Source: Meghimatium bilineatum
Lineage: Eukaryota > Mollusca > Gastropoda > Stylommatophora > Philomycidae
Assembly (NCBI GenBank): GCA_034231615.1
Contig: CM067307.1
Coordinates: 9,250,437 to 9,314,436, forward strand
Direction of reading: 5' to 3'
Length of the DNA: 64,000 nucleotides
The translations under genes were made by a program, and so were the position numbers. Below, one piece after another: positions 6,101 to 53,546 of this stretch. The notes below the pieces were generated by a model. That model searched no databases. It was not told the origin of the DNA and saw only the letters and a program-made list of their open reading frames with translations. Positions within the stretch are counted from its first letter, which is position 1, and every line of letters starts with the position of its first letter.

Positions 6101-9100
6101 ATGATATACATGGAAGTTTAAAATGTCATTATTATCTACTCCTATTTTAGAACTTGCCAACAGATGGGTGATATTTATTTTCCTTAAACATTAATTGGGG
6201 TATTGTATACTAGATTTGTTAATTGAATACAAAACACAAAGATATACAGATTTTTAAATATATAGACCTATTGTTGTATACACAGACACTTTTTGAAAAA
6301 CACTTTTTGAAAAACACTTTTCTGACAAATAAAGTAATTATTTCACAAATTGGCAAATATTTTGCAAACTTTATGCACCATTTCATCCTATAATATGACA
6401 GGATTCTTGAATTGTGCAATTCTTTAAAAAAAATTAATATCACTCTCAGCTGCACCAACATCAACACAAACACACATCTTTATTCAGTTGATGTAGATAT
6501 GTGTAAATTTAAGTGATTTTTAAAGAAAATTTATATTGCAAAACAACATAACAGTGTAAAAAAAATAATGTGAATTAATTTTCTTAAAGAAATTCTATCT
6601 AATGCAGGTCTACTCTAAGACATTCACATAATCATATTTGTCATTTTATTGTCAATGTAAAAGTTCTGAATATTTCTTCTAGTCTTTGCTTACTACATTG
6701 ATAGGACAATGATATTAAAATATTTTATTTGTGTGGTGTAGTGAGGAGGAGGATTTTCTAGAGAGAATGTCCATGAGATGATGGATTTCTTCCGCTGTCA
6801 TCTACATAATGGCAGGGTTCTCGGGTCTGTCCTGTTTCAAGTGTGCAGCCTCTCCCACCAGGGCACCCTAAAAACACTTGGAGGTCTGCCTCCACGGACA
6901 GTGTCAAACTTATTTTCACCATCAACCCACATAGCTCTGCTGTCTATTATGTCCTATTTTGACCCTTTCCTCTTCTTCAGTAGGATCCCAAGATGTGTGA
7001 TGTGTTCTGTGACCACCTCCGCCCCCTCTGGTTATTTAAACATGACAAGAATCTCAGGGATATATTGACTCAGTCATCTCAAGTCTGACATTCCTAATCA
7101 TTTTGGCACCATCTGCTGCAAACATAGTAAATACTACACCCAGACCCGCTCTGTCACATTCCCTAAAGCCACTTTCACAATTGATGAGTTTCACATGTGT
7201 CCTGCAACTTATCTATGTCATCATCTGCAAACATTGCACCATGACGTACACAGATGAGACTGGAAGGAGGCTCGTAGACCGATTCTGTAAACATCTGTAC
7301 AGCATAAAAAACCAGACTGGTACTCCTGTCGCTCACCATTCAATTGCATGGAACATTGGGTAGGCCATGATATTCAGGTGACAGCCATTAAGTAATGCTT
7401 CTCAGATGACCGGCCCCATTGCATGCTTGCGAACTCTATACATGTCCATATGGCATGATTGAAACCTTTTGGTCTCAATGCCAGTCAGTCATATGGATGA
7501 TATGTTGTTAGATCATTCCTTTGTTTGTCTTGTGTCACCGATATTTGAGTGTATTTTGTCTATTTTTTTATTTGTGTTGTTTCACCTTTGACCTTCTCAT
7601 ATAAACATAGATATAAATCTTCCGGGTTAATATCTATATTTAGCTCTGCCACATGAATGTAATTAATGTCATTCATACTCTTCCTTTTTTTTATGCGAAT
7701 GTATTCTTGATAAATGCATTTTGGTCAAAACATTGATTTGTGTGTGTTTTATGTGTGATTCCAGTAATTAGCAAACCTTCATTACCCTGTTCATAGTTTT
7801 GCTATATAAAAAAAAAAAAGACAGCAAAAAGACAAATCAAGATATGATAAGAACATTACACGGTGAATAGTGTTGGCTTGTAAACAGCATTATAATATGA
7901 AAGCTGAGATTTTTGGCATTTATATATTATATATTAGATATAAAAGCACAGAAAAAATTAATAATGGAAGGCATGGTTGCTGGTAGCAGGGATACGGGAA
8001 ACCCAAGACAAAGATGGATAAGATCCATCACAGGCTGTTTAAACATGCCCTGGCTACAGGTAAATTTGACCAGAATTGTGTGGGGGTTATAGAAGATCTA
8101 TAAAGAGGACAACATTCTGGAATAAATATGTCACCTGATATATATAGCCTATAAAAATATGATGTTTTAGCACAAATAGTAAATTAGATACAAGGAGTTA
8201 CAAACCTGGTCACTTTGAATATTCTAAGTAAACGAAGAGCTCTGAGCACACTGATACCAAATGAGGAGCCTGTCTTGAACTCTGACCAGATGACCTCTAC
8301 TATGCTTCCTACAATGACCTGTAATAGACAAAAGTTAGTAATTGTAATATTTTGATCGTTATCCTGTACTATTCAAACATTTATGAGTATTTTTAGGAAT
8401 ATGTACAATTGCTACTAATGTGGATTAGAGTGCGGATCATGGCACATCAATCGATTATAGATTACATGTAGATTACTATAATAGGGAGCAGCGTAGGGCA
8501 GAGGTTAACGCACTGGCTTCGAATATAAGTGGTGCTGGGTTTATTCCCCAGTTGAGGCGGAAATATTTTTCAGATCGCAATGGCTCCAGGATCGACCCAG
8601 CCTTAAATGGTTACTGGATTAATCCAGGACATAAAGACTGAGAGGGAGAGGAGATGGCTACCGCCCTCATTTTCAGAGCCACTTAAATGTGAGATCGCTA
8701 ACATCTCACACCCCTATGGCATTAATATGTTGTTATTTGATAAGAATGTTTGTGTATTCGTTCAAAAACACAAAAATAATATGTATCAGGGGTGCCACAT
8801 GTGTGCATGGACAATAATTATGCTGTGTGTCAGCCAAGATCTAATGTTGACCGGACTGACATTATATGCGATTTCTTCACGTTTTATTAGTTTTTTGGGC
8901 CATATTATATTAGTTTGGATATGAAACAATATATATACAACAAGTATAGGTATTTAGGAGGATTTTATCAATGTTTCCACACATTTCTCAAGTATTAGGG
9001 TCGCCAAGAAGTTATATGTGCGATTTGAAAATGGTATTTTGCAATTTTTTTCCCGAATTCTCAACTTCACAACTTGCTCACAACTATCATATCATACATA

Positions 9101-18100: not shown

Positions 18101-21100
18101 AGATAGAAATCACTGGAGGATTCTGTGTGCTGATGAATACAATGTGGTACCACTATGACCCTAACGGGTTACGAGTTTATTAATTGATACAGCATCACCA
18201 TCCCCACAGACAACAAATTTGACTAAATGACCAAACTTCATGCAACTAGCAAGCAAGTTGTTATCCCCTGTACATGACTACTGGAGAAGACACAAGATTA
18301 TATTAAGAACATTGGCTTCGAACGTGAGAGTTGGTAAAGCATCACATTGAGTTGAGTGTGCATTAGGATGGTTAATGATAGGAGGTCAGAAATGGATCCT
18401 AAAATAATGACAAATTAGTGAAGGAGACATATTAAATGTAGAAAAAAAATCATGCTTCAGTACACAGATCAAAGTAAAAAGTACACAATCAGTAAAAGCA
18501 GGAAAAAAAAGTAGGTATAGAAATTCAGAAAACTGACCAGGTGTCATGGCTGCTAGCAAATCATCATCATTGTGTTCATTATCATTGTCAGTATCTTCTC
18601 CTTTCAACAGTTTCATTTTTCTAGCTGCTGCCTGCCTGCGAGCTGCAAAAAAATTTCAAAATATTTGGGAAAACTAAATTTTCTGTCAATATATATATAT
18701 ATATAGGAAGAATTTCATGGAAGATAAGATAACAGATTCTGAGAACACTTCTAAAATAATTACTAAAGAAAATAAACATCAAAGTATTTTTAGGCATGTT
18801 CAAAGACATCAACACCTTGTTGACCTTTTGTGTGCTTTATAAGTTTGTTTTTGCTGAATTTTCTATTTCTGTAATCCAACATTTGCAAGGTCTGCCCCTG
18901 GCTGAATGTCATCTTCTGAGAACTCTCCATGTTTCCACAAGGGTTTTAGTTCTGCACTGTTGGTTTTCTAATCATATTACTCATATAATAATAGATGTGT
19001 ATCAATGGCAGTGATGATAATAGCCATAGGGTATCAATGAACTAATCATGAAAATTATAGTGAATGTACACTTACCTTCAATGATTTTTAACTTCTCCTC
19101 ATCACTTGTCCTATCTTCACTAAGGATGACTTCCTCTGAAAGAAAAAAACATTACAATTTAGAAACCAAAATGACAGTTCTGAATTAATTAATTGTGAGC
19201 AGAACTGAAATATGAGTGTCAATCCTGTTTCATATGCCGGGTGGTAGAATTTGACTTAGGACGCTATAGATTGGTCTGTCTCCTGGCATTAATAATACTG
19301 AAGAGGTTTTTCAAATTTTTACTAGTCTCAGATGATAATGATGATGATGGTCTTCTGCAACTTTACAGATGGTCAGGAAGAAGGCCTGTGTAAAATTTGA
19401 AATGGATTATAAGGCCCTTGAAATTTCACACAGGATTGCTTGCCTGTTCAAGTTTTATGGAGAAATTTCCTAAAGCTCATCGGTATGTCCCAGATGACTG
19501 GTTGACTAAACGTGGTTGTGGTATGTAATGCCACAAGCGAAGCTGTCCTCTACTCCACAGGGAGCTTTATCTTCTTGTTTCTTTAACCAGTGTCTATCAA
19601 AGAATACTCTGTCCATTACACATTGTGATTGGCCAATAATAAACTCTCTCCATCTTGCTCAGTCAACGGCTGGATGTTGATCATGAAATAATCCTTTTAG
19701 TTGTGAGCAGGTAGACTGTGGCAGTCAAAAATTTTTCAGACAAAAGCGCAGATTCTTTTCAGTTGTATAACTGAGGTGACACCCAGAATTGTGAATTAAG
19801 CTTGTCTCAAAGGCATGGTTATGTACAGGTGGTTTATGGATGCATATTTAGTCCCTGAAGGGAGACATTCCAATGTGCCAATATCCCTGGATTACCATAT
19901 CCTCCAAGGAGCGCAGTACACACTTCACAGTTTAGTTCATGTATACTAAGAGTTAATGGTGTCTTTTTATGTCCAGAATCCCGCCGAAGACGGATGTGTC
20001 GGGCCATTGGCGCAAATAAAACGGCGACACAACGCATTTCCATTTTCTGGACTACATCCTGCTGGAAATCTAGCAGGACCATGATCCAGCTAGATCCAGT
20101 TGGAGTTTGAGAATGAACGCAGAAGAAGAAGAAATGTCCAGAATGTTAGAACCACTTTATCTTTATTTAAAATTATTTGATATTTTCATATCTGGTTTTC
20201 TCATGCTGAAAAATCTTACAGAAAAAACACAATAGCTGGTTTATTTCTATATCAAATTCAATCAAATATCAAATTACTTTTCTGGCTCTCTTTCTTCTCA
20301 CCTGAGCTATAAATTCACTCTTCATATTCAGAACTACGTGTATGATGTACCCTTGTCTGCACACATCATACCTGCGTTACAAATTCATTCTATATACCCA
20401 TTATGTTATATCTTTATCTGCAAACTTTCCTGTATTACAAATCAATTTAATCCATTAAGTTATATCTTCCTATAAACTGACCTGCTTTTCAAATCATTAA
20501 TCCATTAAGAGTTCTGTCTTTTAATATAAACTCACCTGCTTTACAAATCCATTCTAGATACCCATTAAGTTCTCTTTCGATCTGCTGCTGCCTGCGAAGC
20601 TTGAAAAAGGCTCTTCGGTTTTCTACTCTTTCTCTCTCTTTGGCAAATTCTCTACAAAAAGGCAATATATTAATACACATAAAACAGTTGAACACGAATG
20701 TACTTCTATGACCACAGAATAATAAGTGAAGCTGATATTGATAATATAGTATTAATAGTAGACTAAGTAACACAGTTTGGAGCCAAAATTGGGAGCTGCG
20801 TTAGCTCTGTGGTTAGCGCACTGGCTTTGCATATGAGTGGTCCTGGGTTAATTCCCCAGTTGAGGCGGAAATGTTTTTCAGATCACAACAGCTCCCTGGT
20901 CGACCCAGCTTTAAAATGGGTACCGGATTAATCCAGGAAGTAAAGACTGCGAGGGAGAGGAGATGGCTACCGCTCTCATTTGCAGAGCCTCTGAAATGTG
21001 AGATCGCTAACATCTCACACCCCTATGGCATTAATAAAATGCTATGGGTTACTTTACTTTTTTTTTTAAGTAACACAGTTGTAAAATATCAAAACAGAAA

Positions 21101-24100
21101 TAAGACAATTTTAAAAGTACAGATCATAAATCAATATTTGTATCAATACTCCGCAGAAGATGGATGTGTTGTGCTATTGGCGCAAATGAAACGGCGACAA
21201 CACATTTCCATTCTGTGGACTGCATTCTGCTGGAAATCTAGTAGGACCATTGTCCTACTACAATAGAGATCTAGTGGAAGTTTGAGAATGAATGCTGAAG
21301 AAGAAGACATCAGTACAATTTAGCAGGTATAGAAATGCATAAATGATTATATAAGACATAAATTGTCTAATGATCGATTTTGATTAGGGAAAGTTGCTGG
21401 ATTGGAATGTAGGCCCTATAGTTAAAATGTTAACCTTTTATTCTTCTATAGTCATCATAATTAAGTGACGTCTCCATAATGAAAGTTGGCTGCAACGGAC
21501 CTTCAACATCCTATCTCTTGTCTTGATGGTACACTCTGCTAGACTGTAACACGCCCATCTTATGATGTTACTCTCTCACTTGTATCTCTGCCTACCTCTT
21601 GCTCTCCTCCCCACGACTTTACCCTCAAGTAAGGTCTTCAACAAGGTGTCATGTCTTTTAATATGTCCAAATAATTCTTAAGAATTCTTTCTTCATACAA
21701 AGTGTTTTTAGATTCTCTGTGTTTGTTTTCTTCTCTTTCTATGAAGTTCTCCCTATTCTTCTATATATCCACATCTCAAAGGCATCAATTTTGTCTTCTA
21801 GTTGTTTGGTTATCTATAGTAGGCATGTCTGAACCAGACATATTTATTGTCCACCTCATGGCAATTGCCTCCCCTTAGAATGTGATACTGCAGTGTTTGC
21901 CATGGTAGTTCTTGAAAAACTTGGAATTTCTTATCTCCCTTGAATTGAGCTCCCAAATGGTGAATGGTATTAAAATTACTTGGATTGTGAAAGCAACGAC
22001 AGCTCGTCACTCCCATTTCAGATTTATGGACAAAGTTTAAAACTAAAAGATCACATAGTTTCATAAGTCCATGGAAACCAAAAGGCAAATCATAAATATA
22101 ATCATAATTTGTGTAATCAAAGTCAGATGTAGACACTAACTAAAGAATGAGAGAAAACTTACTATGTGTGAAATAAGATGTTTACGAAAAGCAGCAAACA
22201 GAACGAGAAGAGATCATGTGAGGAATGAAGAGATTATAACTGCTGTCTGTACAATGTATGTGGTCAAACATATTAAAAAACATACCAAAATGGTTTGGCT
22301 GCTACATGAACCCATATTAGCAGCAACAAGAGAATAAACACACATAAATGGGTAACATATTGGGTAATTCAGCACTGAGCAAACAGATATATAAATGTTG
22401 TGCCCAATTTCTGCTTATTAATACAATTTAAAAATATACACACTTTGCTTTGGCTACAATTGTCATTTATACAAAATATTTTACAAATTGTTTTTGTAAA
22501 AATGTCCTCATATAATAGAATGTGAGACTTCCAAAAGCTAAAACAAATGATGTAAATTTATCTGAAGGAAACTAAGATCAGCAATAATATAAGTGTCAAT
22601 ATCTTACTTACCCACTAAGTACACCTAAAACTAGATTCAGCATGAAGAATGAGCCCAGGATGATGAGAGGTATAAAATATAAAATGTTGTACAAATTTCC
22701 TAAGGCATCATTTGTCTGTGGAATTATGAAAATATCTTTGTTAAATTGTGTAATATTAACATATTTTATAAGCATAAATTCTTGGTATCATCTTCCATCC
22801 TCAACTGTTCCTTGCAGGATAGTTTTGGAAAAGGAATCATGTCTAATCACATGACCAAACCACACAAATAGGCAACATTTCACCACTGCCAAGAGATTCT
22901 GACCTAAAAGAGTATTCATTGTTTCTTACATATAGGCACACTTATGTGTCTGCTTTATTTTCTGTATAATGGCTGCGCAATACTTATCTGTAATATTTGT
23001 TCCATATTTTGTGGAATGTCATTTAGTATATGAGGTATTTCTTATTCCTATTTCAACAAAGTTTGGATGCTTGCTCTTCATCACAATGTTATGTAGGGCT
23101 CTCTGTACATGCTTCCTCATCAAGGCTAATTCCTTGAAGTGGAGATGGGACTTAGTCCAGCCAATAGAGGCTGGAAACTAAGATTGGCCAGGCCATTCCT
23201 GATATCGAGCAGGACAGTACAACAGTCCTGCCCAAGCAATCACAGGTGCTGAAGTTGGAGAAATCAGAGAGAGAGAGAAGCACACTAGCAACCACTGTCT
23301 CATGTAACAAGAGTAGATAACGTCTTCAGAACGAATAAAATCAGTACATGTTGAACATTTTGTTTTACTTCATTTAGTGTGTCCCACTGACTTATCTATA
23401 GAGTATGAAACATTGTCTTGAGATTGTAAAATAAGAAAACAAAATGTGTAAATCTGAAACTAGGTGCAAGGTAAAATAACTTGGTTTATGAATCAGTATT
23501 ATAGGAAATGTTCCCTCTAAGGTACATGGCAGAGCCAATCAAGCAAGTGTCACGCAGCGTGGTATAGACGATCATGTTTCTCCACAACACTCTGTCTCCT
23601 GTGTTATTAATAAATTTAGTTGGTGATATTCTCCCACACCATGACAATCCATAAAGCAACTTTTACTCTTCCTCTGTCTCTTTTTTTCCTTGATATTTCC
23701 AGTGATTACTGAATTTTCAAATTCTTGTTTTTTTCATGACATGTTCTATAATTCTAAACTGCCTGTTTTTTATGTTAGCTAGAATATATCTCTTTACCAG
23801 AGCAAGCCATCTTAATGTGTCACACTCCAGTTTCAAAATGTTGCACATAAATATTGGTACCTAGCACATAAATTTGACCTAAGTTCACTTAGATTACCGG
23901 TAGGTGAATTATTGATCTGATTACTTCTAATTCTGTTGAGAATTCACACTCATAAAATAAAGAGAAGTTCTCAAACTTTGAAACTGTTTTCATTAGAAAG
24001 GTATGTTTAAATCATTAATGACTGCTCAAACAACAATATATTTCATGCACACAGACAAAATTTTAGAGGGACCATTGACTATAGCAGACAGCGTTATACA

Positions 24101-27100
24101 TAGGTACTCATCTGTCTAACCAGTGGTTGACTATAAACTGCCTAACTTCCCAGATCATAAACCCATTTTCTAGTGACTGAATTGATTGTTATTTGGTTGC
24201 TGATCCAGCGTCCCATGCCCTTTGACCCAACATTATGTTGCTGGGAAATGAGTGAACTGATCATTTGAGTTTTTATGAGTGATGAGAGAACTCAAACCCA
24301 GGTCATCTAGTTCAGTGGTTCTTAACGCTGGAATATGGCTATCCTACATGTAAATGTGTTGTCACACAGGTCATTATAAAATGTTTACATGTTATTTGGC
24401 ACTCTGTATACAAAGTCTAGAACTGTAAACCTAAAGATGGTCTTCAAGTAGCTCCTGAAAAGTGATTTACGCATGGTTGCCAAACCAGTTTGATACGTAG
24501 ATGTAGGCAAAATATTGGAGAGCTTAGACTGTCACTGTAAGTATTTAAAATGGGTACTGGATAGTGTAAGAAAAATACAAAAAAATCAATAGAAACTGTT
24601 CATAGAATAACAATCAAAGAGGGAATGCCTACAAGTCTAAACAATATACATGAATTACACAGAGTACTAACATCACACAAATAGGAGAGTGATGTGTTCC
24701 ACCCTATGCAATGTAATCAGAGTTGATGGAAAATAGTTACCCTTAGCACTAATTTTAGTCATTTAATTCCTAATGTTTCAATTTTTCTCTGAAGAAAGTA
24801 GTAACAAATCACATTTAATTAAACACACTTACATAGTACAGTACATTGGTCCAGCCCTCCATTGTGATACACTGAAACACTGTCAGCATGGCAAAGCCAA
24901 TGTTGTCAAAGCTAGTTATTCCATGGTTGGGACCTACCCAGCCAGCACTACACTTGGAGATGTTGGCCTGACACTTGAATGTTCCATAATCTGAGATGAC
25001 ATTACAAGGACGTACGTCCACTTCGTCCCCAAGGTCAATGTCATCTAAGATAAGCATAAAATATTTGATTAAAAGGTATTTCAATTAAAATAAGTAAATA
25101 TGTGTTACTACTATTATGTTATCAAAACCTAATGTTATATTATCAAAACCTACTGTTATGTTATCTAAACCCACTGTTATATTATCAAAACCTACTGTTA
25201 TGTTATCTAAACCCACTGTTATGTTATAAAAACCCACTGTTATCAAAACCTACTGTTATATTATCAAAATCTACTGTTATGTTATCAAAATTCACTGTTA
25301 TGTTATCAAAACACAATTACATCATCAAAACCCACTGCTATGTTATCAAAACCTACTGTTATCTTATCAAAACCTCTTCAAGCTATGTTATCAAAAAATG
25401 GTAGAAAAACGACCTAATTTAAAAAAAATTATAATTGTTTTTATACTGTTTTATTATTAGCTGTAGGTGTTTATAACACATAGGCCTATTTTCTTATTCA
25501 ATATATTTACCTTCATATTTTTATTACTACAGCCCATACCTGATCCTCAGAAAACCTCTGGCTTTTTTGGTAATTATATATTTAGGAAAAGTTATGTTTT
25601 ACTATTACATTCTTGCTAACACACAGGTTCATGTGGGTTTACAGTAAAATAAAGTACTTGTGTATACCTATATGCCTTTTATATAAAGCCAATTCATCCT
25701 TTAGGGTTAGGGTTAGGGATGCCAACTATTTGAAGTGGAGATGGGTCTTAGTTCAGCCAACAGAGGCTGTAAACTGAGGCTCGTTGGGCCATCCCTGACA
25801 TCGAGCAGTACTAAAGTTCTGCCCAAGCAAGCACTGGTGTTTGAAGTTGGAGATACCATGCCAAGAGGCACATCATCAACAACCATGGTATCACGCATCT
25901 CGACTATATAATATATTTTCACAACAAAGTAAGCCTAACTGCAAAAGAGAAGAAGACATAGGCCCTATATTCCTTTGCATTACTGTGCAGAAAATGGGAG
26001 CAAAGAAAAGTAATATTACCATCTGCATGCATCTCATAACAGGTGACTAAGGAGGTTGGCCATGAGGTTTTATAATCCATACCATGATCTCCAATGTGAT
26101 GAAGCTTGCTGTAGATCCATGCCTGGACTGCTGGGAATCAATCCTTTTATGTGCAGAATATTCCCTCTAAAGAACATGGCAGAGCCAATTAAGCAAGTGT
26201 CATGCAATGTGGCATATCGAGGCCAACTCCTTGAAGTGGAGATGGGACTTGGTCCAGTGTTGATACTAAGATTGGTCGGTGCAACCTCTAAATTGAGCAG
26301 GTCCACAGTCCCGCCCAAGCAAGTACAGGTGCTGAATTCGGTGATACTGGGCCAATAGGCACACCCCCAACCACAGTATCATGCGAAATGCAACATGTAT
26401 ACACCACCATCTGCAACAAGCTCTGAGATTGCAGAAAAAGTAACAGCAAAGTCTCTTCTAGGTTGTCCAGCTTGCAGCATTGCCCCCTACAACCTTTTTG
26501 AGTCAAGCAGTCATCTGGAACTGAGCAAAAGCTCTGGAGAACTTTCCCACCAAACATATTGTCATATAGATACCAATTTAGAGCTGAAAGTAGTGCTCCA
26601 CAGTCTGACAGAAGAAACAAATGTGACAAATTTTTACTTCCTCAGAGTTCTATCCTCCTCATCATTATCATCATTTTTTACAGATGTTGACAGATCTTTT
26701 GGGTGTTGTGTGGCTTCATAACAAAATTGTGTAAGCAGTTTTCTGTATATTTATTTTAGTTTCCACAACTCACAGTATACTGAGGTTGTGAGGAGCTCTC
26801 TGTTGATCTTTGCTTTTGCAAGGATGGGATATATTGGCTTTATTGTATTAACAGTTGTGTTCTGTGGTCATTTTATTTTAGGAGTTTCAGAGAGGAGTTT
26901 GACACCACCATATTAAACCAAATAGTGAAATAACGGCTACACTAATGAAAATTTCAGCTCTGATGCATGTACTCTGTCACACCGGCGAAGATCTTGATGA
27001 GTGGACCCCCAGTCAAAATAGCTAACACCACATCCTAGACGAAATAATGAAATAATCCATCTTTCAAGTGATGTTGACTGTGTTACACAAAAACACAAGT

Positions 27101-30100
27101 TGCTATGTACACCATTTTGACCGGAAGTCAAAAGTATAAGTGACAATGACTCTTGTTCCATGACTAGAGTAAAGGAATTTGGTTTGAAATGTGGTGTTGC
27201 TAGAAAGGAGTGGTTTCGTGGGCAAGAAAGCATGATGGTCAATCAACTGCGCACTGGGACCATCAGTCAACGTGTAATGGCGGCTACACTCAAGGAGAGA
27301 TCTGAACACCTATGGACTTGTCTGGAGTGCAGTGACGATGCTACAACGACTAACTAACTATATTAAAGCAAGCCATTGAACTGTAATTTTGAGAAATTAA
27401 GTTGATTAAGTATGTGTTTTAAGTTAATTAATGAAAATTATGTTGTAGGAATTCATGGTATGGTGGAAGAAGACGACGTGGGAAGAGGAAGACATGGCTG
27501 AATAATACCAAGGACTGGACAAGGTGTGAAGTTTCCAAACTCATCAGAATGGTAGAGGATAGAGATGTATGGAAATCTTTCTGCACCAATTGTCTCAATG
27601 TGACACTGATGGGTTATTGGTTTTATTATTATTATATATGGACTTTTCATAAATTGTATTTGCAAAATATAAGTAACTTTACCTTGAGAAAATTGAATTG
27701 TGTCCTTTTTGAAACAGGCACTGTGAAATGCCCCAACATAAAAATCAAGGCCAATAATTGCAAAGATGACGATGGCAAAGAGGACGAGGAGACAGACCTG
27801 GAGCAGTGGTGCCATCGCTCTGATGATAGATTTGAGCACCACTTGGAGGCCTGAAATTAGATTGGAAGGAATCAGTATAAAAGTTATAACTTTCAGTGAC
27901 AAAAATAAAGATATGCATCAATAAATATATTAGTTAAATCCCATTATAACAATGTGGTCTGGACTGATGAAATATTTTAATATTTATGTAATAACAGAAA
28001 TCCACTATATACAGTACAAACAATAAAGAATTGATATAAATGGGAATTCTGAAAAGTGTTATTAAATATGGAACTTTGTTATAAAAGAATGTGCTAATGA
28101 GAGATTTCACTATATTGATGTTAATATTCCAGAATTAATAACAAATTGAAACCAGTCTGAAGTAAGTCAAAAATTTCAAATATTTGGGTACCTTAGTAAC
28201 ATCAAATAGACGATTTATTAAACAAGTCAAATGTAGAATTTCTCAAGCAAAGGCAACATTTCACAAAATAAAGAATATCTTGCGTAATATATCTGTGTCC
28301 ATTGAGATGTGAAGGAGAGTTCTTACAAGTTATAGTGAACCAATTCTCATTAATGGAAGTGAATCTTGGACAATTAGAAGTATAGAGAAAAACTATAAAA
28401 ACTATAAAGAGGCAGTAGAGATGTGGTTTTAGAGAAGAATGTTAAGAATACTATGGACAGATAAAAAGAATTACCAAGATATCTTGGCAGAAGTTAAATA
28501 AAAATAGGACTTCTCCCCTAAATAACAAAAGAGACAATCTACAATTTTAGGACACATCATCAGAAAAGGAAAGATGGAGCACATGGTGACAACAGGCAAG
28601 TTGAAGAGCAAGGGAGGTAGAGGATGAGAGAAGATGCTAGACAGCCTGGCATTCTTTAATAGAACATTAAATAAGAAATAATTGTCAGCACATGTAAAAG
28701 AAAGTTTTGGAAAGACATGATAACCAATGCCACAAGGCATGGACTATTACAAAAATGATTGACAGAACAAGAAACAGAAGGCAGTGGAAAGACATAATAA
28801 CTAATTACACATGATATGGACTAAACGAAGAAGTGATTGACAGCACATGAAACAGAGGGTTTTGAAAAGACATGCTAACCAATTATGTATGGCTATGTTA
28901 TTGATATTCAAATGCTGATGAGTAATGCAGTTCTTGTCAGCACAATGCCATTCTTTAAAAAGTGCAGGCCTTTTGAAGTTGACTTAGTGATCCATGTAGT
29001 AAGTTAGTTACTGTTAAGGGAGCCTGTAGCTTTTTTTTTTGGAGTTGAAAGGTAAGAGCAGTCAATAAGGAGGTATTCCACTGTTTCATTGGGATAAGAG
29101 CAGTGTCTACAAGTGGGCAGTTGCTGGGGTTTGATACGGTTTAAATGGCTATTGGTCCTTGCATTCCTGTTCAAAACTGAAAGATAAGGTATTGGTTTCT
29201 CCTGTAGAGTGTTAATGTTGTTATTGTCCTTTAGCCGTATCATTTTAATAAATACAATTCAACCAGTCAGCCCATTTCTTCAGCCAGATTTCCCTAGTAT
29301 TGTTTCTGAGAATCTGTTTGAATGTTCCCATACTACAAGGTCTTTGCTTCTGTTGTTTTGAGGTGCCTCTTTTGAGACGCCATTACCCCCAGTTTGAACT
29401 AGCTAGTCTCTTAATGAGGTTCAGGCATTTACTTGCTTTTCCTCTGAGATTTTTATATAGTCTTTTAGTGTTAGTTGTCCGTCTAGTTTTATTCCAAGGT
29501 ATACAGGTGTTTCTTCCTTTGTTAACATTTTCCCACTCAATTTGTAGTTGACAGATCTTTTGGGTGTTGTGTGGCTTCATAACAAAATAGTGTAAGTAGT
29601 TTCCTGTATATTTATTTTAGTTTTCACAATTCACAGTATACTGAGAATGTGAGGAGAGTTCTGCTGATCTTTGCTTTTGCAAGGATGGGATATTTGTCAG
29701 TAGTCCAGATGGCAAGGTCATCAGCAAACAATGCTTTTGGCACATTGAGATGTTTCGCTAGATCACCAATGAAAATAAGGAAGAGTGTGCAGCTTAGACA
29801 GGAGCCTTGAAGCAGTCCCTCCTCAGTGTTTTTTTCTGGGACAGTGTACCACCATAGTCGGTGGCTATGGTTCTGTTTGTCAGGAAGACCTGTATCCTTT
29901 CAAACATTTTCCCACCTATTCCCATTCCGTTCATCTTCAGCAAGAGTCTCTCCAGACTTTGTCAAAGGCTTGCTCAAGGTCACTGAACAATGCTAATGTG
30001 CTTTTTTTTCCTTCTTTTAAACCATCCATCTCATTTTGTGTGAATCTGAAGAGGTCATCTGTGAGACATTTACACCTGAAGCCTGCCTGGTTATTATCTA

Positions 30101-33100
30101 GACACTCATGGCCTTTCAGCCACCAGTACAATCTGTTGTTAACCATTCTCTCAACCAGCTTGTCTATGCATGAGATGAGGCATGAACTGTAAGAAATGTT
30201 GACAGCACATGAAACAGAATGCAAGACACGATAACCAATGATACACGGCATAAGCTATAAGAAGAAATGATTGACAGCACATGAAACTGAAGGCTGTGGA
30301 AAGACATGATAACCAACGACACATGGCATGGACTATAAGAATAGCACAATAAAGAGAAAAAGACTATCCTGCAATTATTTTTTCAAAAATGTTGCTTGGG
30401 ATCAGCGTACAATACCATGAGACATTGTTCTTAAGTATTACATTATAACATACTACATTGGAATTTCATTATAGCGCATAAGTTTATAAATGTTCCATTT
30501 TAACACTTTTCAAAATTCCTTATTTATATTGTTTATTGTAGGGCTTATCTATTGTATATAGTGAATTTCTGCTATTACACAATATTTGTTGGTCTGGACC
30601 AAGTTGCTACAATATAATTCCATTGGAAGCTTATATTTTATTTTTAATATAGAAAGATAGTTACTATTTATCAATGTTGAATCATAGTATTTTGTAACAG
30701 AATAACAAAAAATGTATTGATAATGCAGCTACATTATTTCAGTAACGGATCCCAGCTGTGCTAAATTCTAATTGGGTATTCCCAATTACTTTTACTCTGC
30801 CCTGATTTCTTCTCGTCCTACAAAAATAAGACAGCTTTTAGGGTAATGTTTTCTTATTGACACCAGAAAGTCTATTCTGCATAGATGGAATGGTTGATGC
30901 GTTACTGGATCTCGGTGATTTCAGAGCGAAACAATTTTTGTCAATGAGGAAATATATTTTTTTTAAAAACAGGTTAGCTCATCCATAGCAGATTGAGGAA
31001 CAAGTAAAATTATTTGTAGCAGCTGAATGATACCTTATTTTTATAGACCATATTATTTACTCCAAAGCTCAGTATTATGGACATATAGTCTCTCTATGTG
31101 AAGTGTTCTTTAGAAAATGTTGTCCTCATTGCCATACCATGCTGTAACCTCTCGGTTATGTGCGAGCTGCTTAGGCTCTTCCAGTGTCATGTTCAGAAGC
31201 TCTTTCATATCCTGTGTTCATCATAGTCTTGGTTTGCCTCTTATTCCTTTTTCTAGAACTTTTAAGTGTCTTTTTATATATTCAAAATGTGTTAGCTTTT
31301 TTTTTTTTGGGGATAGTTTTGAGGAGCCAGTAATGTCAATATTTTATTTTCTATTGCAGATGTCATTGCCCACATCTCACAACCATGTGTTGCCACTGGA
31401 AACATATAGCTTCTTAATAGTTGTAACTTTGTTTTTTAGTTTGCTACTTGCCAAAGATTTTTCATCTGTGATGTTTTTTACAGGGCAATTGCCAATCTCT
31501 ATTAGATCTCTGCTGAGTAATCTCCTGTGGTGTTGATAGCTGACCCGAGATATTCAAAGTTGTTGACATGTTCTAGTTGTTCTTTGTCAATGAGGTATGA
31601 ATTCATCTCTGGTTATATGCATTAATTTATCAGCTTGAAGATTTAAGTAAGGTGGCAGTGAGGCGGATTTTGATACCATTTACATTAAATTTCTTATAAT
31701 CGACCACACAGTCATTCAGCATTTTTTTTCCTCAGGACTGACCTGTTTCTTATACATGAAAATCTCAGCAGCAGTGTACAAAACAGTTGCACCTATAAGA
31801 TTCCATGATGTAATTAATTCTTTTGCTGATATAATTTTATTTGTACAAGTTTGTAAATTGGAACTAGTACATTTTTTAATATAATCAGGACATTTCACCA
31901 CTGAAAGAAAATAACTGCACTTACCAGGGCTACAAATAACATGATCAACATTGAAGAAATAGTATTTTAACAGGTTGATCACTTGGTTCCTATGTTGTTT
32001 AGAATATGAAAAGAAACTATAGGCCTGCTTTAACATTTTAACAATGCTGTGATTACAGTAAGAACTATACATTCTGAATAGATATAGGGCCTACATATAT
32101 AACTTAGCTGATTAGCACAGGAATGTTTTATGCTAAGGGTATAAACCACTACAGAAAATCCCCACTGTCTAGCGGGTTAGCATGCGAGTACTTCAGGCCA
32201 ATGGATTAAATCCCCACAAAACATTCTGATGGGAAACTCAAATATAGTCGACTGTTTTAAACCATCTTCTGACATCTCTTGCACTTCAGCTCATTTCCAA
32301 GCATAATGGTGGTTCGTTTCTCTTTGAACTAATCGACAAAGCAGAGAGGAGCTTAATGAAAATGTGCAAGACACTTTCTCCATCAAACCTCCTCAGGCAT
32401 ACAATCACGTGTGAAACATAGGGATTATTGGTGGCTGCAATTCAAACAATGTGTGGCTCTCATAGTCCACTTGAAATTTGACACTGGCTGCTTCCTGACC
32501 ATCAGTAAAGACACAAAAGGTCATCTAGGCCTATATATATGAATATATATACCAGGGTATATATATAAAATAGTTAAGAACTACATTTGTTGGCACTTAC
32601 AATAATATTAGCATATTTACTCATCTTGTGTTTATTAAATACAATGCTGTGATTACTGTAAGTACTATGTATTCTGAATATATATATATATAAATATAAA
32701 TATATATAAGAGTGTGTATATATATATATATAAAATAGTTAAGAACTACATTTGTTGGTACATGATGAAATATTATTACCATATTTGCTCATCTAATAAT
32801 TATTACGGTAAAACTGAAAATATATCATGACAGTCTAGGATGTAAGACATACTGGGTATTCCAGATACCAGCTTGAGAGGTCGAAGCACCCGTACTGCCC
32901 GTAATGTGCGCAGATTGATTGTACCTGATGCTCCAGCGGCAAACAAGGTAAAAAACCTGCAGGACGGATAAGAATATTAAGCCAACCAATAAGGTAAGAA
33001 GGGGCTACCAGGTTGAAGCAGAATAAGGAAAATTTGTAGCTAAAAACTTAATAAAAAGCAAGTAAAATAAAGTACATTCATAAGGAGAAATGGCATGAAC

Positions 33101-36100
33101 CGTATCAAATATTTTTCCAAATTTAATATTGTATCATATATTAATATATGGATATCTGTCTTATTGTCATGATCTCCTGGTCAAGATGGGCTTGATCATT
33201 CCAAGGGGTGATGGGTATCGATATAATCGCTGAAAGGGAGTTTACCCCTTGAAAGGAAAGAAGGTTTAGTGTCAAAGTGTTTAGTGTTAACTCCATTTTA
33301 GAGTTTAATGCCCGTCACCCCTAGTAATGGTCAAGTCCATGTGGACCAGGAGATTGTGTGGATAGTACCTACCGGTACATATCAAATTGTACTATTTTAA
33401 TAAATACATCTGATAAAAAATCAAAGAGAAATTCAAAAGATCGGCTTCAAAGAAATTTTGGGATTAAATATGTCATTTTTGTGTGATCAATTAGGGAAAG
33501 TGATGTAGAATTCAGAACAGTGAACTTTTAGAAGGATCTGTATTTTCGTACACAAATGGGCTAACCCATAATATTTTATTTTGATATAAATTCTTCCCAA
33601 ATTATTTTTTAGAGTAATTTACTAAAGATGAAAAAATTCAATTTGGGTATAAGTGATTCAATGAAATATTAGTACATCCCTATACAAAAAACTCAAATTC
33701 TGTACATATTTACAGGTATGATAGAATTTGATAATGTTCATACCAAAAGGTTACTTGTTGCAGAATGTTAATGTAGATTTTGTCAGCTAAGCTATGAGGA
33801 ACTGCATATGAAACTTTTATTCTCTTATACAATTAGCCAATAAAGTAGCATGACTGAACTTTCATAATATGTGAAATGCAACAGTAAAACTGATTGACAT
33901 TCAAAAAATAAAATTGTCTTATTAAAGACAATTGTCATTATTTTAAAGCCAACTAAAATGACAAGTGATAGCAATCTCCAAATCGCAAAGTGGATACATT
34001 AAAAAAAAAAGCAATATTAAATCTCATCTTATCATACATGTCAACTTTCAGAAGGGCAATTTATTGTCTTTCAGTTCAAAATACATCTAAAAAGAAGTAT
34101 TTTAATCCTCCAATTCTTAATAAGGAGTCTTCACTAATGGTAAGTACTAGAGGTTTATACAGACATATTCAATGAAATCTAAATATGCTGGAAATCCGTA
34201 GTAGTTGACAGATATAAATAATAATTCAGTCATCATCATCAGGTGCCACTTCTCAACAGACCTCCAGCATCTTTTGTTTATTGCCTTGGTGGTGAACTCT
34301 GCTAGACTGCAGCTGTCAATGATGTTTCTCTCCCACTTGTATCTCTGCCTACCTCCTGATCTCCACCCGTCAATTCTTCTCTCAAGTAATATCCTCAGCA
34401 AGGTTTAGACTTGTGTTGCTGCTTCTCTTTGGCATGTGTGGTCATCTATCGCAGCAATGATGTTAACAGTTTCAGACCTGCGTAGTTACATCTCTTTCTG
34501 GTTTTTTCAGAGAAGAATGAAAAGTCCAAAACTGGCATGGAATCCTTTGTCACAACTGGGACATGTATGATCAGGATTGGGCATCTGTGTGCTTAGTGTT
34601 CTGTCTTTCCAGGCAGCATGTTTTCTCTGTGTCTCTGAGATTTAATACACCTTAGCGATACAAGCACCTTTACTAGTGTGGCTGTTCCACACTGTGATTC
34701 TGAGTGACAGACTCTCAGGATGTGGCATTGATGTGGAAGATCTTTAGAGAAACTTTGAGAGAGTCCTAGAAGTATTTCTTCTGTCCACCGGAAAGTGTTC
34801 TCCCTTAAGGAGCTCACCATACTTCGGCCGTTTTGTGATGCATTTGTTACTTCAGCTGTTTTGTGATGCATTTGTTACTTCAGCTGTTTTGTGATGCATT
34901 TGTTACTTCAGCTGTTTTGTGATGCATTTGTTACTTCAGCTGTTTTGTGATGCATTTGTTACTTCAGCTGTTTTGTGATGCATTTGTTACTTCAGCTGTT
35001 TTGTGATGCATTTGTTACTTCAGCTGTTTTGTGATGCATTTGCTACTTCAGCTGTTTTGTGATGCATTTGTTACTTCAGCTGTTTTATGATGCATTTGTC
35101 AGACAATTACACATGTCCAGTACATATTGGTTCTGCCTTCATTAGCATTATATGAATGTTGAGATATTGTATCTGGTGTCTGATCTGTAGCCTGCACTGT
35201 ATGTGGATTAAAGTGAGGAAAAGTGGATATTGTATTTGGTGTCTGATCTGTAGCCTGCACTGTATGTGGATTAAAGTGAGGAAAAGTGGATATTGTATTT
35301 TGTGTCTGATCTGTAGTCTGCACTGTATTTGGATTAAAGTGAGGAAAAGTGGATATTGTATTTGATGTCTGATCTGTAGCCTGCACTGTATTTGGATTAA
35401 AGTGAGGAAAAGTGGATATTGTATTTGGTGTCTGATCTGTAGCCTGCACTGTATTTGGATTAAAGTGAGGAAAAGTGGATATTGTATCTGGTGTCTGATC
35501 TGTAGCCTGCACTGTATTTGGATTAAAGTGAGGGAAAGTGCTAGTCATCAACCATCTCACTCTCTCGTACTGGCCGATTTGACACCAGTGGCAAGATAAA
35601 GTTGAGACAGCTGGAAAATAGTTCAGAATGTAATGGTGATCATTGTTTAAGTTAATGATGCTAAGAAAATATTGTAAACCCTTCAACACAATGAACTGCT
35701 GCTGTGAATATATATAGCCTTACAATAATCATTAAACAAAAAATGGGAAAACCACATAAGCCTAGATATTAAACAGACACCTTCCAAATCATAAATAAAA
35801 ATCAACAATAATAGACAATCAAAATTCCACCTTAAAAACCACAAAAAAATATTGCCACAACTTAATAAAAATAATTTTACTCTCAGCTTTGACTGCTAAA
35901 AATAAAATAAAATAAAAATGACTAAAACTCATGATGCAGATTCCGTGTGGCATGTGGTATTCTACACACCCACCAACCAAATTGTAGTGCTTTCACTCAC
36001 TCTCCACACCAGTGACCAATTTTAGAGGACGAAGAACTCGAAGTGCTCTGACTGCTGGCTGACTGACTGAGTCAATCATAAAATCTACAAGCCTGTTGTA

Positions 36101-48300: not shown

Positions 48301-51300
48301 AAATAAGAGCAACACAGCGTATTTTCATTCACTGGACTGCGTCCTTCTGGAAATTTAGTAGAAACATTGTCCTGCTACAAGATAGGACGAGCGGGAGTTT
48401 GAGAACATTGTCCTGCTACAAGATAGAACGAGCGGGAGTTTGAGAACATTGTCCTGCTACAAGAAATAACGAGCAGGAGTTTGAGAACATTGTCCTGCTA
48501 CTAGAGATAACTAGAGGGTGTCTGAGAACATTGTCCTGCTACAAGAGATAACGAGAGGGAGTCTGAGAACATTGTCCTGCTACAAGAGATAACGAGAGGG
48601 AGTCTGAGAACATTGTCCTGCTACAAGAGATAACGAGAGGGAGTCTGAGAACATTGTCCTGCTACAAGAGATAACGAGAGGGAGTCTGAGAACATTGTCC
48701 TGCTACAAGAGATAACGAGAGGGAGTCTGAGAACATTGTCCTGCTACAAGAGATAACGAGAGGGAGTCTGAGAACATTGTCCTGCTACAAGAAATAACGA
48801 ACAGGAGTTTGTGAATGAACGCAGAAGAAGAAGAAATACGATAATGAAGAGTTGTAACAGAAAAGCTTCAGAAGCCCTTGGTGACCTACCATCATCGAGT
48901 ACTGTCTCCGCAACGAAGGTTGGCTGCAACGTACAGCCTACAGCATGTCTCTTCCTTTGGTGGTGCACTCTGCTAGGTTGCAATATGTAAATCACATGAC
49001 ATTTCCCTTCCACGTGTATCTCTGTCTACCCCTTACACGCCTCCCCTTAACTCTATCATCCAGTAAGGTCTTAAACAAAGAGTCGTGTTTTTTAATGTCC
49101 AAATACTAATAAAGATAGCCATTGACACTTCTTTAGCACCAGGTGATGGTGGGGAGGGAGGGTTGAAAAAGGTACAGAAAAAGGTTGAGAACCCCTGATC
49201 TAGCTTTATAAGGTCATGCTTCATAAAACCTTGAACCAATTTTTTTTTCGAGTATGGCTGAAAAATATACATTCCTCATGTATACCAATCCCTTATCTAG
49301 AATAGTCATGCGTGCTGATCTCATAAAGTTCTACTTTGTTTATCTAGCTTTTCCAATGCTTTTCATGAGCAGGCAACACAGAGGCAAATCGACAAATTTC
49401 TTCTTCTTCTTTCGTTCGCTAATAATGTCTATATCTGCAGTGTTGTTTCTTGTATAAATTGGACAGCGTTTTCCATTTCTTGTTTTGTACAATAAAGAAA
49501 CCGACAAATAATTAATTACATGAGACAAAATTAGACGTTGACCAACACGCAAGGCTGTTCTGCAGAAGTGCTTATAATTTAAGGTAAGGAATACCCCGCC
49601 ATTTTTTTCAATAAAAACGACTCTTTTTGCGACGTCATAACATAATCTTATAATATATCTAGATGATCGCGAATTAATACATCGTTTCTTAACCGGTTTA
49701 CTGCCCCAAACTTTTGTGAAAGTTGGAATATTTCGTTATTATTGATGGGGACACAATTTGTCTCTTGGGTGTTTAACCTGTAGTTTGTGTATACCATAAC
49801 AGTAGAATGAAAGACTGAGAGTCTACAAAGTAACTGCGTGTACTCATGTACAGTAGTTGTGGCACTAATTCAAATCAGCAAATATTTAGTGCGGATCTGT
49901 ATGACGTCACAGAACATCGACGTCATAGATATCCTATAAATATTCTTTTAAAAAAAAGTGGTATATAAACTATTTTTTTATAACTTATTTTGTAATTCCA
50001 GAAATTCATGTAAATTTGATGATAATTATTTTATAGTTCTAGGTTATTGTGCATAAGTGGAGTACATTCGTTGTGGTTTTTGTTTGGTTTAAAAGAGAGT
50101 TTTGGTTGTGTAAAAGATTCTGGCTTAACCATTGCTGAAAAATACTGGTTTAACCAAACACGATCAAATTATACCTATCTCAGATTCATACTAAGCTGTC
50201 AGACGTTATATTACATTCTCAAACGTCGCATTACATTCTCGGACCTTATACTTCAGTCTCAGATGTCATACTAAACTCCCAGACGTCACGTTGTACCATC
50301 AGAAACAATGGTACAGTCTCAGATGTCATACTAAACTCCCAGACGTCACGTTGTACCATCAGAAACAATGGTACAGTCTCAGATGTCATACTAAACTCCC
50401 AGACGTCACGTTATACCAGCAGAAATAATGCTAGTCTCAGATGTCATACTACTCTCTCCAACAACATACTACACTTTCTGACGATAGCACGTACTTTCAG
50501 ACTCCACTTTACCCTCTGAAACGTCAAGCTACATTTTCTGACGTCATAACACATCCTCATGTGTCAAAACTACACTCTCAGACGTTGAAGTTAAAAAATA
50601 CTCTCCGACACCATAGCAATCTGAGGAATTATGTTGCCCTTTCACTCGTCACACTACAGTAGCAGTCGTAATACTAGTCTCAGACGCAATCCCACACTCT
50701 CATACGTTAACAAGTAGTCAAAGGCGTCAAAATACACCCTCAGACATGATCTTAACCCTGAATATTTTATACATTTCCAGTCTAACATACTCAAAAACAT
50801 CATTGGTTAGCAGACTGTTTTTACAATTGTTACAACAGAAACCATAAAATCATCGTAAATAACTGTTACATTTACAGATTATAATTACGAAATAAAAAGA
50901 AATACTTACCCAGTGACTACTACTATAAAATCCATGATATTCCACACGTTACGTAAATAGGATCCTTTATGCAACACAAAACCTAAAGCTACAATTTTGA
51001 GAGATGCTTCAACGCAAAAAATCCCTAAAAAGTACACTTCTGTATCGTCCTGAAAATACATATACAATGTCATTAATACGTTATAAGGAAAAATATAATA
51101 TGAAAACATAGTAAACTTATGCATATACAATATGGTTACGGAGGTAAAGTAATTTTGTAGGAAAACTAATGCGTGTAGATGATGTAGAATATGGTTATTT
51201 AGGAAAAAGTAATGTATGTAGAATATGGTTACTTATAAGGTAATATATGTAGCATATGGTTACTTATAAGGTAATATATGTAGAATATGGTTATTTAGGA

Positions 51301-53272: not shown

Positions 53273-53293
53273 GTGGACAACAGTCAAGGAATG
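53273..53293 (-). promoter_or_regulatory. U12-type AC acceptor with branch point of intron 1
   Basis: Read on the minus strand, TTCCTTGACT is followed by GTTGTCC and a terminal AC, directly before the exon 2 base G. The putative branch A lies 11 bases before the splice point. Minor (U12) introns have the branch consensus TTCCTTRAC 10-15 bases from the acceptor and often AC ends. Minor introns are known to recur in voltage-gated sodium and calcium channel genes. The partner donor (expected ATATCCTT) was not found between here and 64000, so it probably lies outside the window. Confidence 0.82.
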
Positions 53294-53546
53294 CAACAAT
53301 TTATTTGAATGGAATAAATCAATATATGGTCTATCTATTACATGCACTAAAATATAGCAAATCAAGTTATCAATCATACACTCAACGTGTAAACAAATAT
53401 ATTTATCTAATACGACACAAATATGGAGGAATACTAATTTTTTATATACACCCACACACACATATAATCACACAAAAACGGACACATAGACAATTTATAT
53501 CTCATACAAACGAGCGATCAATGGAATGATTAATTCCACACACGTC

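What the first reader, a model, noticed from the sequence alone, without database searches (positions are those of the whole stretch)
32853..36092. Mutually exclusive exons for the domain I voltage sensor of a Cav2 channel
Seen: two exons, 4a (36001-36092) and 4b (32853-32956), both with good splice sites, both phase 2 in and phase 1 out, both encoding IS3-IS4. Their lengths (92 and 104) are 2 mod 3, so including both or neither breaks the frame; exactly one must be used. Known: Drosophila cacophony (the insect Cav2) has mutually exclusive IS4 exons; vertebrate Cav2 genes, as I recall, have a single exon here. Inference: this animal tunes Cav2 voltage dependence by choosing its IS4 exon. Either this is an ancient protostome feature or it arose twice.
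Basis: partly seen in the sequence, partly recalled or inferred. Interest (0 to 1): 0.88.

Follow-up and report, generated by a model that had tools for sequence, protein, structure and literature searches.

The report
Snail calcium-channel gene's swappable voltage sensors
A snail's nerve-type calcium channel gene carries two interchangeable exons for its first voltage sensor, and the second version, which lacks the outermost gating charge, also occurs in other molluscs, flatworms and echinoderms, so this switch may be older than the split between those animals and us.

Summary
The minus strand carries the domain I to II part of a Cav2 alpha-1 gene. Exons 4a (92 nt) and 4b (104 nt) lie between exons 3 and 5 with matching phases and GT-AG splice sites. 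Either one alone gives an open frame; both or neither shifts the frame into a stop.
4b is the standard IS4. 4a belongs to a distinct type in which the outermost gating arginine (R1) is proline (once alanine). That type is found in 22 of the 306 Cav proteins fetched: 3 molluscs, 16 flatworm records, an orthonectid and 2 echinoderms. Ten 4a exons form one clade (96/94). The arthropod alternative (IS4A) differs: it keeps R1 and gains a charge. So this is probably not the cacophony pair. Best reading: an old bilaterian alternative exon, lost in some lines, with arthropods evolving their own; the exon-4 trees use few columns and do not settle this. In this genome's second Cav2 gene only 4b was found.
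No transcript of this animal could be tested; mutual exclusion and the voltage effect are inferred. New variant of a known kind.

The parts
36001..36092 (-). Exon 4a: alternative IS3-IS4 exon, 92 nt, encodes [30 protein letters not shown](S); outermost S4 arginine replaced by proline
32853..32956 (-). Exon 4b: standard IS3-IS4 exon, 104 nt, encodes [34 protein letters not shown](S)
32957..36000 (-). Intron between 4a and 4b, 3044 nt; too long for exclusion by steric crowding (inference); contains two tandem repeat arrays
50910..51049 (-). Exon 3 (IS2-IS3), 140 nt, shared upstream partner of 4a and 4b
27683..27850 (-). Exon 5 (S4-S5 linker, IS5), 168 nt, shared downstream partner
53167..53272 (-). 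Exon 2 (IS1), 106 nt, with a U12-like AC acceptor
24833..25044 (-). Exon 6 (domain I pore loop), 212 nt
22612..22715 (-). Exon 7 (IS6), 104 nt
20536..20651 (-). Exon 8 (I-II linker, beta-subunit binding helix [15 protein letters not shown]), 116 nt
8202..8318 (-). Domain II IIS3-IIS4 exon; further domain II matches at 14820-15050, 10310-10432, 4138-4272 and 776-907 (tblastn limits, not exact exon ends)

Best explanation
Exons 4a and 4b are a real pair of alternative exons of a Cav2 alpha-1 gene, used one at a time, that swap the S3-S4 loop and S4 helix of voltage sensor I. 4b is the standard sensor with five positive charges. 4a is a second, old sensor type with four, the outermost (R1) being proline. 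Wrong splice products (both exons or neither) are frameshifted and should be removed by nonsense-mediated decay. The choice should shift activation voltage by roughly 10 mV and may alter inactivation and G-protein inhibition; the direction is open. The 4a type was already present in the ancestor of echinoderms, molluscs and flatworms and has since been lost in some lines, vertebrates among them, and in this snail's second Cav2 gene. The arthropod IS4A exon is probably a separate duplication. Shown here: exon structure, frame logic, protein-level constraint, presence of the 4a type in other animals, the two gene copies. Inferred: splicing in this animal, decay of mis-spliced forms, voltage effect, age and losses.
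For: Frames and splice sites. 4a against 4b over 17 S4 codons: 12 identical residues, pS 0.77, pN 0.22 (over all 30 codons of 4a 12 identical, pS 0.67, pN 0.38). A profile without the window finds 4a at 58.4 bits. 4a-type IS4 in 22 of 306 fetched proteins (segments also). Ten 4a rows are one clade, 96/94, and 92/94 on S4 alone. In a tree without exon 4 the 4a carriers do not group with each other beyond their kinship; for example the Pomacea 4a protein is sister to the Babylonia 4b protein, 99/98. Numbered isoforms in Pomacea, Antedon and Lytechinus carry the type. Second Cav2 gene on C24 with 4b and no detectable 4a. R1 of IS4 is the residue changed in R192Q Cav2.1, listed with a leftward activation shift (passages of PMC9864995, PMC6096772).
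Against: No RNA from this animal could be examined. Aplysia Cav2 is reported with eight alternative sites, none described at IS4 in what I read (PMC10657410 passages and section 5; PMC5818475 passages; supplements not available). Only this genome showed both exon types in one gene; elsewhere I saw one form per record. Joining 4a with arthropod IS4A is not rejected on the whole exon (AU p 0.21), and a 4a clade without the echinoderms is not rejected (p 0.336). R1 can also be lost in an otherwise standard exon: four stickleback records have threonine there, so loss of R1 alone proves no kinship. Direction of the shift: R192Q is leftward in HEK cells but without effect in oocytes (PMC9864995); Cav1.2 K1Q moves activation about +11 mV (PMC5629230); and in Drosophila the form with fewer charges, IS4B, has the higher activation voltage (PMC11828482). 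The last two point the other way from R192Q.
Confidence: 0.78

Rival explanations
1. The pair is the same as the Drosophila cacophony IS4A/IS4B pair, inherited from the protostome ancestor, with heavy divergence.
For: Same exon and same order (alternative first, standard second); the joint clade is not rejected on the whole exon, AU p 0.21.
Against: Arthropod IS4A keeps R1 and adds K or R after the helix (6 charges); the 4a type lacks R1 (4 charges). IS4A groups with standard exons of arthropods and Seison (86/90), apart from 4a; on S4 alone the union has p 0.0275, though the likelihood gap is only 0.74. Echinoderms carry the 4a type.
Confidence: 0.15
2. 4a is a dead or dying exon: a leftover of an old duplication that is no longer spliced in.
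For: No transcript evidence; no 4a was found in the second Cav2 gene of this genome; Aplysia is reported without an IS4 pair.
Against: Open frame, both splice sites intact, phases kept, and a profile from other species matches all 31 columns; numbered isoforms of Pomacea and two echinoderms carry the type.
Confidence: 0.08
3. The likeness of echinoderm and spiralian 4a exons is convergence: independent duplications of 4b that each lost R1.
For: Short sequence; the 4a clade without echinoderms is not rejected, p 0.336; R1 was lost on its own in stickleback records.
Against: Same length (31 residues in all ten rows) and shared loop letters (PS[LF]DQPAIR in Lytechinus and Pinctada; GFES in Antedon, flatworms and Intoshia); one clade at 96/94.
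Confidence: 0.25
4. 4a and 4b belong to two overlapping or mis-assembled genes rather than one.
For: The genome does hold a second Cav2 gene.
Against: That gene is on contig C24; 4a, 4b and exons 2-8 lie in order on one strand of C10.
Confidence: 0.02

Closest known systems
Drosophila cacophony IS4A/IS4B mutually exclusive exons
   Same: Cav2 gene, voltage sensor I, one of two neighbouring exons chosen; shown to change activation voltage and active-zone localisation (PMC11828482, passages read)
   Different: The arthropod alternative gains a positive charge and keeps R1; 4a lacks R1. Drosophila exons are reported as 99 bp each (PMC11828482; PMC12370356 gives 35 residues), here 92 and 104. Separate groups. 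The Drosophila sequence itself was not seen; the arthropod type is read from an ant, a centipede, a sea spider and a mite.
Tandem duplicated exon substitution events of Cav channels (PMC9741552; sections 12 and 16 and passages read)
   Same: Tandem homologous exons, channel fine tuning, loss of one exon in gene copies
   Different: It counts ten events in human and fly Cav genes, all in different exons; the 4a type is not mentioned in what I read. It calls the Ca-alpha1T event conserved across protostomes; the 4a type also reaches echinoderms.
Aplysia Cav2 exons 33a/33b (domain IV) (PMC10657410, passages and section 5)
   Same: Mutually exclusive exon pair in a mollusc Cav2
   Different: Different domain; no IS4 pair described in what I read
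FHM1 mutation R192Q of human Cav2.1 (PMC9864995, PMC6096772, passages)
   Same: Removes the same outermost IS4 charge
   Different: A disease mutation to glutamine, not a natural exon with proline and a changed loop

Membership tests
Cav2 alpha-1 subunit | Domain I sequence closest to Cav2 rather than Cav1 or Cav3 | tested here: met
   Best solved-structure matches are Cav2.2, Cav2.1, Cav2.3 for both splice forms
Cav2 alpha-1 subunit | Beta-subunit binding helix with QQIER in the I-II linker | tested here: met
   [15 protein letters not shown] in exon 8
Mutually exclusive tandem exons | Two homologous neighbouring exons with the same phases | tested here: met
Mutually exclusive tandem exons | Both or neither breaks the frame | tested here: met
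Mutually exclusive tandem exons | Transcripts hold exactly one of the two | not testable with these tools
   No RNA data held for this genome
Cacophony IS4A/IS4B pair | Alternative exon keeps R1 and carries an extra positive charge | tested here: not met
   4a has 4 charges against 5 in 4b and 6 in four arthropod IS4A exons
Cacophony IS4A/IS4B pair | Alternative exon groups with arthropod IS4A | tested here: inconclusive
   Separate groups; AU p 0.21 whole exon, 0.0275 S4 only with a likelihood gap of 0.74
4a-type IS4 exon (proposed here) | R1 absent, (Q)PA-like motif before R2, 31 residues, one clade | tested here: met
   10 of 10 tree rows lack R1 and have 31 residues; clade 96/94. R1 absence alone is not enough: 4 stickleback records of standard type have threonine
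4a-type IS4 exon (proposed here) | Lies beside a standard 4b exon in the same gene in other species | not testable with these tools
   Only proteins, not genomes, of other animals could be searched

The most novel reading that the evidence does not exclude
The common ancestor of protostomes and deuterostomes already had a Cav2 gene with two exchangeable voltage-sensor-I exons, one lacking the R1 gating charge. Vertebrates lost it (and later evolved three Cav2 genes), arthropods replaced it with an exon of opposite charge, and snails and perhaps flatworms parcel the two sensors out among gene copies.
Probability: 0.5. Interest if true: 0.78.

Novelty: new variant of a known kind. Interest (0 to 1): 0.66.

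Why it matters
Cav2 channels drive transmitter release, and most animals have a single Cav2 gene (PMC7939481, passages), so splicing of its voltage sensor is a way to set release thresholds cell by cell. A conserved natural sensor without R1 is a long-running experiment on the residue altered in R192Q migraine, testable by expressing 4a and 4b channels. The arthropod and 4a-type exons change charge in opposite directions at the same place, a clean comparison of how one sensor tunes a channel. The absence of 4a from one of two sister Cav2 genes of the same snail gives a within-animal case of exon loss after gene duplication.

Tried and rejected
Considered and set aside: a cephalopod origin of the window (cephalopod 4b sequences differ, and the trees place the gene with gastropods). 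Incompatible U2/U12 splice sites as the cause of exclusion: the sites around 4a and 4b are GT-AG and look like the ordinary type. Steric crowding: the intron between them is 3044 nt. A separate gene family for 4a: not supported by the tree without exon 4. P0001 as ortholog of the window gene or of the C24 gene: not supported, though not rejected (AU p 0.074 and 0.066). A firm claim that arthropod and 4a exons arose apart: not possible with 22 to 35 columns.

Limits and dropped rows. The protein collection is clustered at 90% identity and each search lists 120 rows, so most isoforms are hidden; I saw no flatworm or echinoderm record of the 4b type in the three lists, which is no evidence that there is none. 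The candidate step missed P0001 and P0013, which would have ranked 7th and 8th among the 229 proteins then held. P0230 and P0232 read RPIKL and escaped my first pattern; one search recounts them as 4a type, which is why the count is 22 and not 20. Echinococcus (P0232) dropped out of the tree because my cut failed. B. pfeifferi, Pomacea, Intoshia and Tyrophagus rows are long-branched. Three of the four arthropod IS4A records run on into non-channel letters after the exon. The genome search with 4a returned one candidate and did not return even 4b, so it does not exclude diverged copies. In one search, R1 is R in 268 of 306 records, K in 12, P in 19, A in 1, T in 4 (stickleback), and two lacked the pattern (P0230, P0232). 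I first leaned 60:40 to a negative activation shift for 4a; on checking, the Drosophila and Cav1.2 precedents point the other way, so I now leave the direction even. Structure prediction was not run.
Full report
What is there. The window is part of contig C10 of a 1.61 Gb, 32-contig genome (G000:C10:9250437-9314436). Its minus strand carries a Cav2 alpha-1 gene from exon 2 (IS1) to the domain II pore. Both splice forms match human Cav2.2, Cav2.1 and Cav2.3 best among solved structures. Exon 3 (50910-51049, 140 nt), 4a (36001-36092, 92 nt), 4b (32853-32956, 104 nt), 5 (27683-27850, 168 nt), 6 (24833-25044), 7 (22612-22715) and 8 (20536-20651) join into one open frame with either 4a or 4b. With neither, the frame stops inside exon 5; with both, inside exon 6.

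More than chance. Searching the window with the 4b peptide gives 4a at 29.3 bits; the best score in 100 dinucleotide-preserving shuffles of the window was 21.2. Over 17 aligned S4 codons 4a and 4b share 12 residues, while 77% of synonymous and 22% of non-synonymous sites differ; over all 30 codons of 4a the figures are 67% and 38%. That is the pattern of an old duplicate kept for its protein, most clearly in S4. A profile made from nine 4a-type exons of other animals, with the window left out, matches 4a over all 31 columns at 58.4 bits, E 1.8e-17 among 996 reading frames, and 4b over 18 columns at 35.8 bits. No third IS4-like exon was found between exons 3 and 5. On a simple matrix recalled from memory the sites of 4a and 4b are usable; 4b's donor is the weakest of five.

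What kind of sensor. The standard S4 reads [22 protein letters not shown] in both vertebrate rows, the rotifer, horsehair worm and nematode rows and four of six mollusc rows; 4b of the window and Haliotis differ by N for D, the leech by V for I. In 4a the outermost arginine R1 is proline, leaving four charges instead of five. R1 of IS4 is the residue changed in R192Q Cav2.1 (passages of PMC9864995).

Who else has it. Three protein searches, each listing its best 120, brought 306 Cav proteins. A recount over all 306 gives 22 of the 4a type: three molluscs (P0001 Biomphalaria pfeifferi, P0002 Pomacea isoform X8, P0013 Pinctada), sixteen flatworm records (P0007, P0009, P0012, P0015, P0018, P0121-P0127, P0147, P0230-P0232), the orthonectid Intoshia (P0133), and two echinoderms, the crinoid Antedon isoform X5 (P0233) and the sea urchin Lytechinus isoform X7 (P0234). 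Of these 21 have proline at R1 and Intoshia alanine. Elsewhere R1 is R in 268 records and K in 12; four stickleback records have threonine in an otherwise standard exon, so loss of R1 by itself is not proof of the 4a type. Four arthropod records show the other alternative, D[LF][16 protein letters not shown] followed by K or R: Camponotus (P0060, which reads through both of its IS4 exons), Strigamia (P0129), Nymphon (P0130) and Tyrophagus (P0172). This fits the statement that Drosophila IS4A has one extra positive charge (PMC11828482). The Drosophila sequence itself was not seen.

Trees. On the exon-4 peptide (31 rows, 35 columns) the ten 4a rows used are one clade, 96/94; the four arthropod IS4A rows are one clade, 99/96, inside a group with standard exons of four arthropods and of Seison, 86/90. 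Forcing 4a and IS4A together costs 5.3 log units, AU p 0.21; forcing the 4a rows together without echinoderms, p 0.336. On S4 alone (32 rows, 22 columns) 4a is again one clade, 92/94; the union with IS4A has p 0.0275, but with a likelihood gap of only 0.74. With so few columns I treat this as moderate evidence. On the rest of domain I, with exon 4 left out, the two echinoderms group together, the flukes group together, and the mollusc 4a carriers fall among mollusc 4b carriers. So the 4a type looks like an exon kept or lost in one gene, not a gene family.

A second Cav2 gene. Exon 3 has a 91% identical copy on C24. That gene holds exons 2, 3, 4b, 5, 6, 7 and 8 and further exons matching P0008 up to residue 1510. 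Its 19,945 nt between exons 3 and 5, free of N, contain 4b but no 4a that tblastn or the profile could detect. The genome search with the 4a peptide gave one candidate, the window's own; as it did not return even 4b, it does not exclude diverged copies. In a 565-column tree the two genes are sisters (94/89, short of the starred level) next to Lymnaea, Biomphalaria and Bulinus (95/94). The animal is therefore a gastropod near the pulmonates; a land snail with an ancient genome doubling is my inference from memory. The B. pfeifferi 4a protein is a further case, a diverged Cav2 copy at 61% to B. glabrata Cav2. A published survey describes one tandem exon kept per gene copy for human Cav1 genes (PMC9741552, section 12).

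How it works. Inferred: the splicing machinery joins exon 3 to 4a or 4b; 3 kb between them argues against crowding, and all sites are ordinary GT-AG, so exclusion should rest on regulated choice plus removal of frameshifted products. Precedents for the effect: in Drosophila only the IS4B form, with fewer charges and the higher activation voltage, reaches active zones and supports evoked release (PMC11828482, passages). Loss of R1 in Cav2.1 (R192Q) is listed with a leftward activation shift (PMC6096772, table passage), seen in HEK cells but not in oocytes (PMC9864995, passage). In Cav1.2 the R1 equivalent K1Q moved half-activation from 1.8 to 13.2 mV (PMC5629230, passages). So an effect of about 10 mV is plausible; its sign is not settled, and I give no lean.

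Literature. Nine paper searches were run; in their listings, and in the passages and sections opened, I saw no description of a second IS4 exon in a mollusc, flatworm or echinoderm Cav2. The listings show only the best 2 to 20 papers each and the library holds open-licence papers only. Two Aplysia papers list alternative sites and mention none at IS4 in what I read; their supplements could not be opened. Public protein records already contain the 4a type, so the sequence is not new even if its description may be.

Verdict. Observation confirmed; interpretation partly supported and extended. New variant of a known kind.

Noticed in passing
53273-53302: Exon 2 is preceded by TTCCTTGAC and its intron ends in AC, the look of a U12 AT-AC intron (recalled signature); no matching [AG]TATCCTT donor was found upstream in the window, so exon 1 probably lies outside.
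   Followed up: partly
G000:C24:20641952-20788872 (L020-L034): Second Cav2 gene of the same genome, sister to the window gene, with exon 4b and no detectable 4a.
   Followed up: yes
P0001 (Biomphalaria pfeifferi isoform A): A diverged extra Cav2 copy in Biomphalaria whose IS4 is of the 4a type, while B. glabrata Cav2 (P0008) has 4b: possible division of the two sensors between gene copies.
   Followed up: partly
16 flatworm records, e.g. P0015: All 16 flatworm Cav2 records among the 306 fetched are 4a-type; the search favoured that type. Flatworms may have made the R1-less sensor a standard one.
   Followed up: partly
P0294, P0296, P0297, P0304 (stickleback): Four stickleback Cav2.2-type records have threonine in place of R1 in an otherwise standard IS4: a separate loss of the same gating charge.
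   Followed up: no
G000:C20:59866841-59866975 and 59916196-59916330: Two exon-3-like matches with equal scores about 50 kb apart, perhaps in a Cav1-type gene: a duplicated exon or an assembly repeat. Several channel genes look paired on two contigs (C6/C20, C16/C25, C1/C2).
   Followed up: no
34820-35099 and 35163-35540: Two tandem repeat arrays in the intron between 4a and 4b: 28 nt x 10 and 63 nt x 6.
   Followed up: partly
20373-20441: Weak likeness (43% over 23 residues, two stops, 21.6 bits) to the exon 8 beta-binding helix just downstream of exon 8; near chance level, but Drosophila has an alternative exon here.
   Followed up: no
29937-30254: Reverse-transcriptase-like reading frame, read by eye, in the intron between 4b and 5.
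   Followed up: no
P0060 (Camponotus): Database protein that reads through both insect IS4 exons, evidently an annotation error, which shows the two exon sequences side by side.
   Followed up: yes
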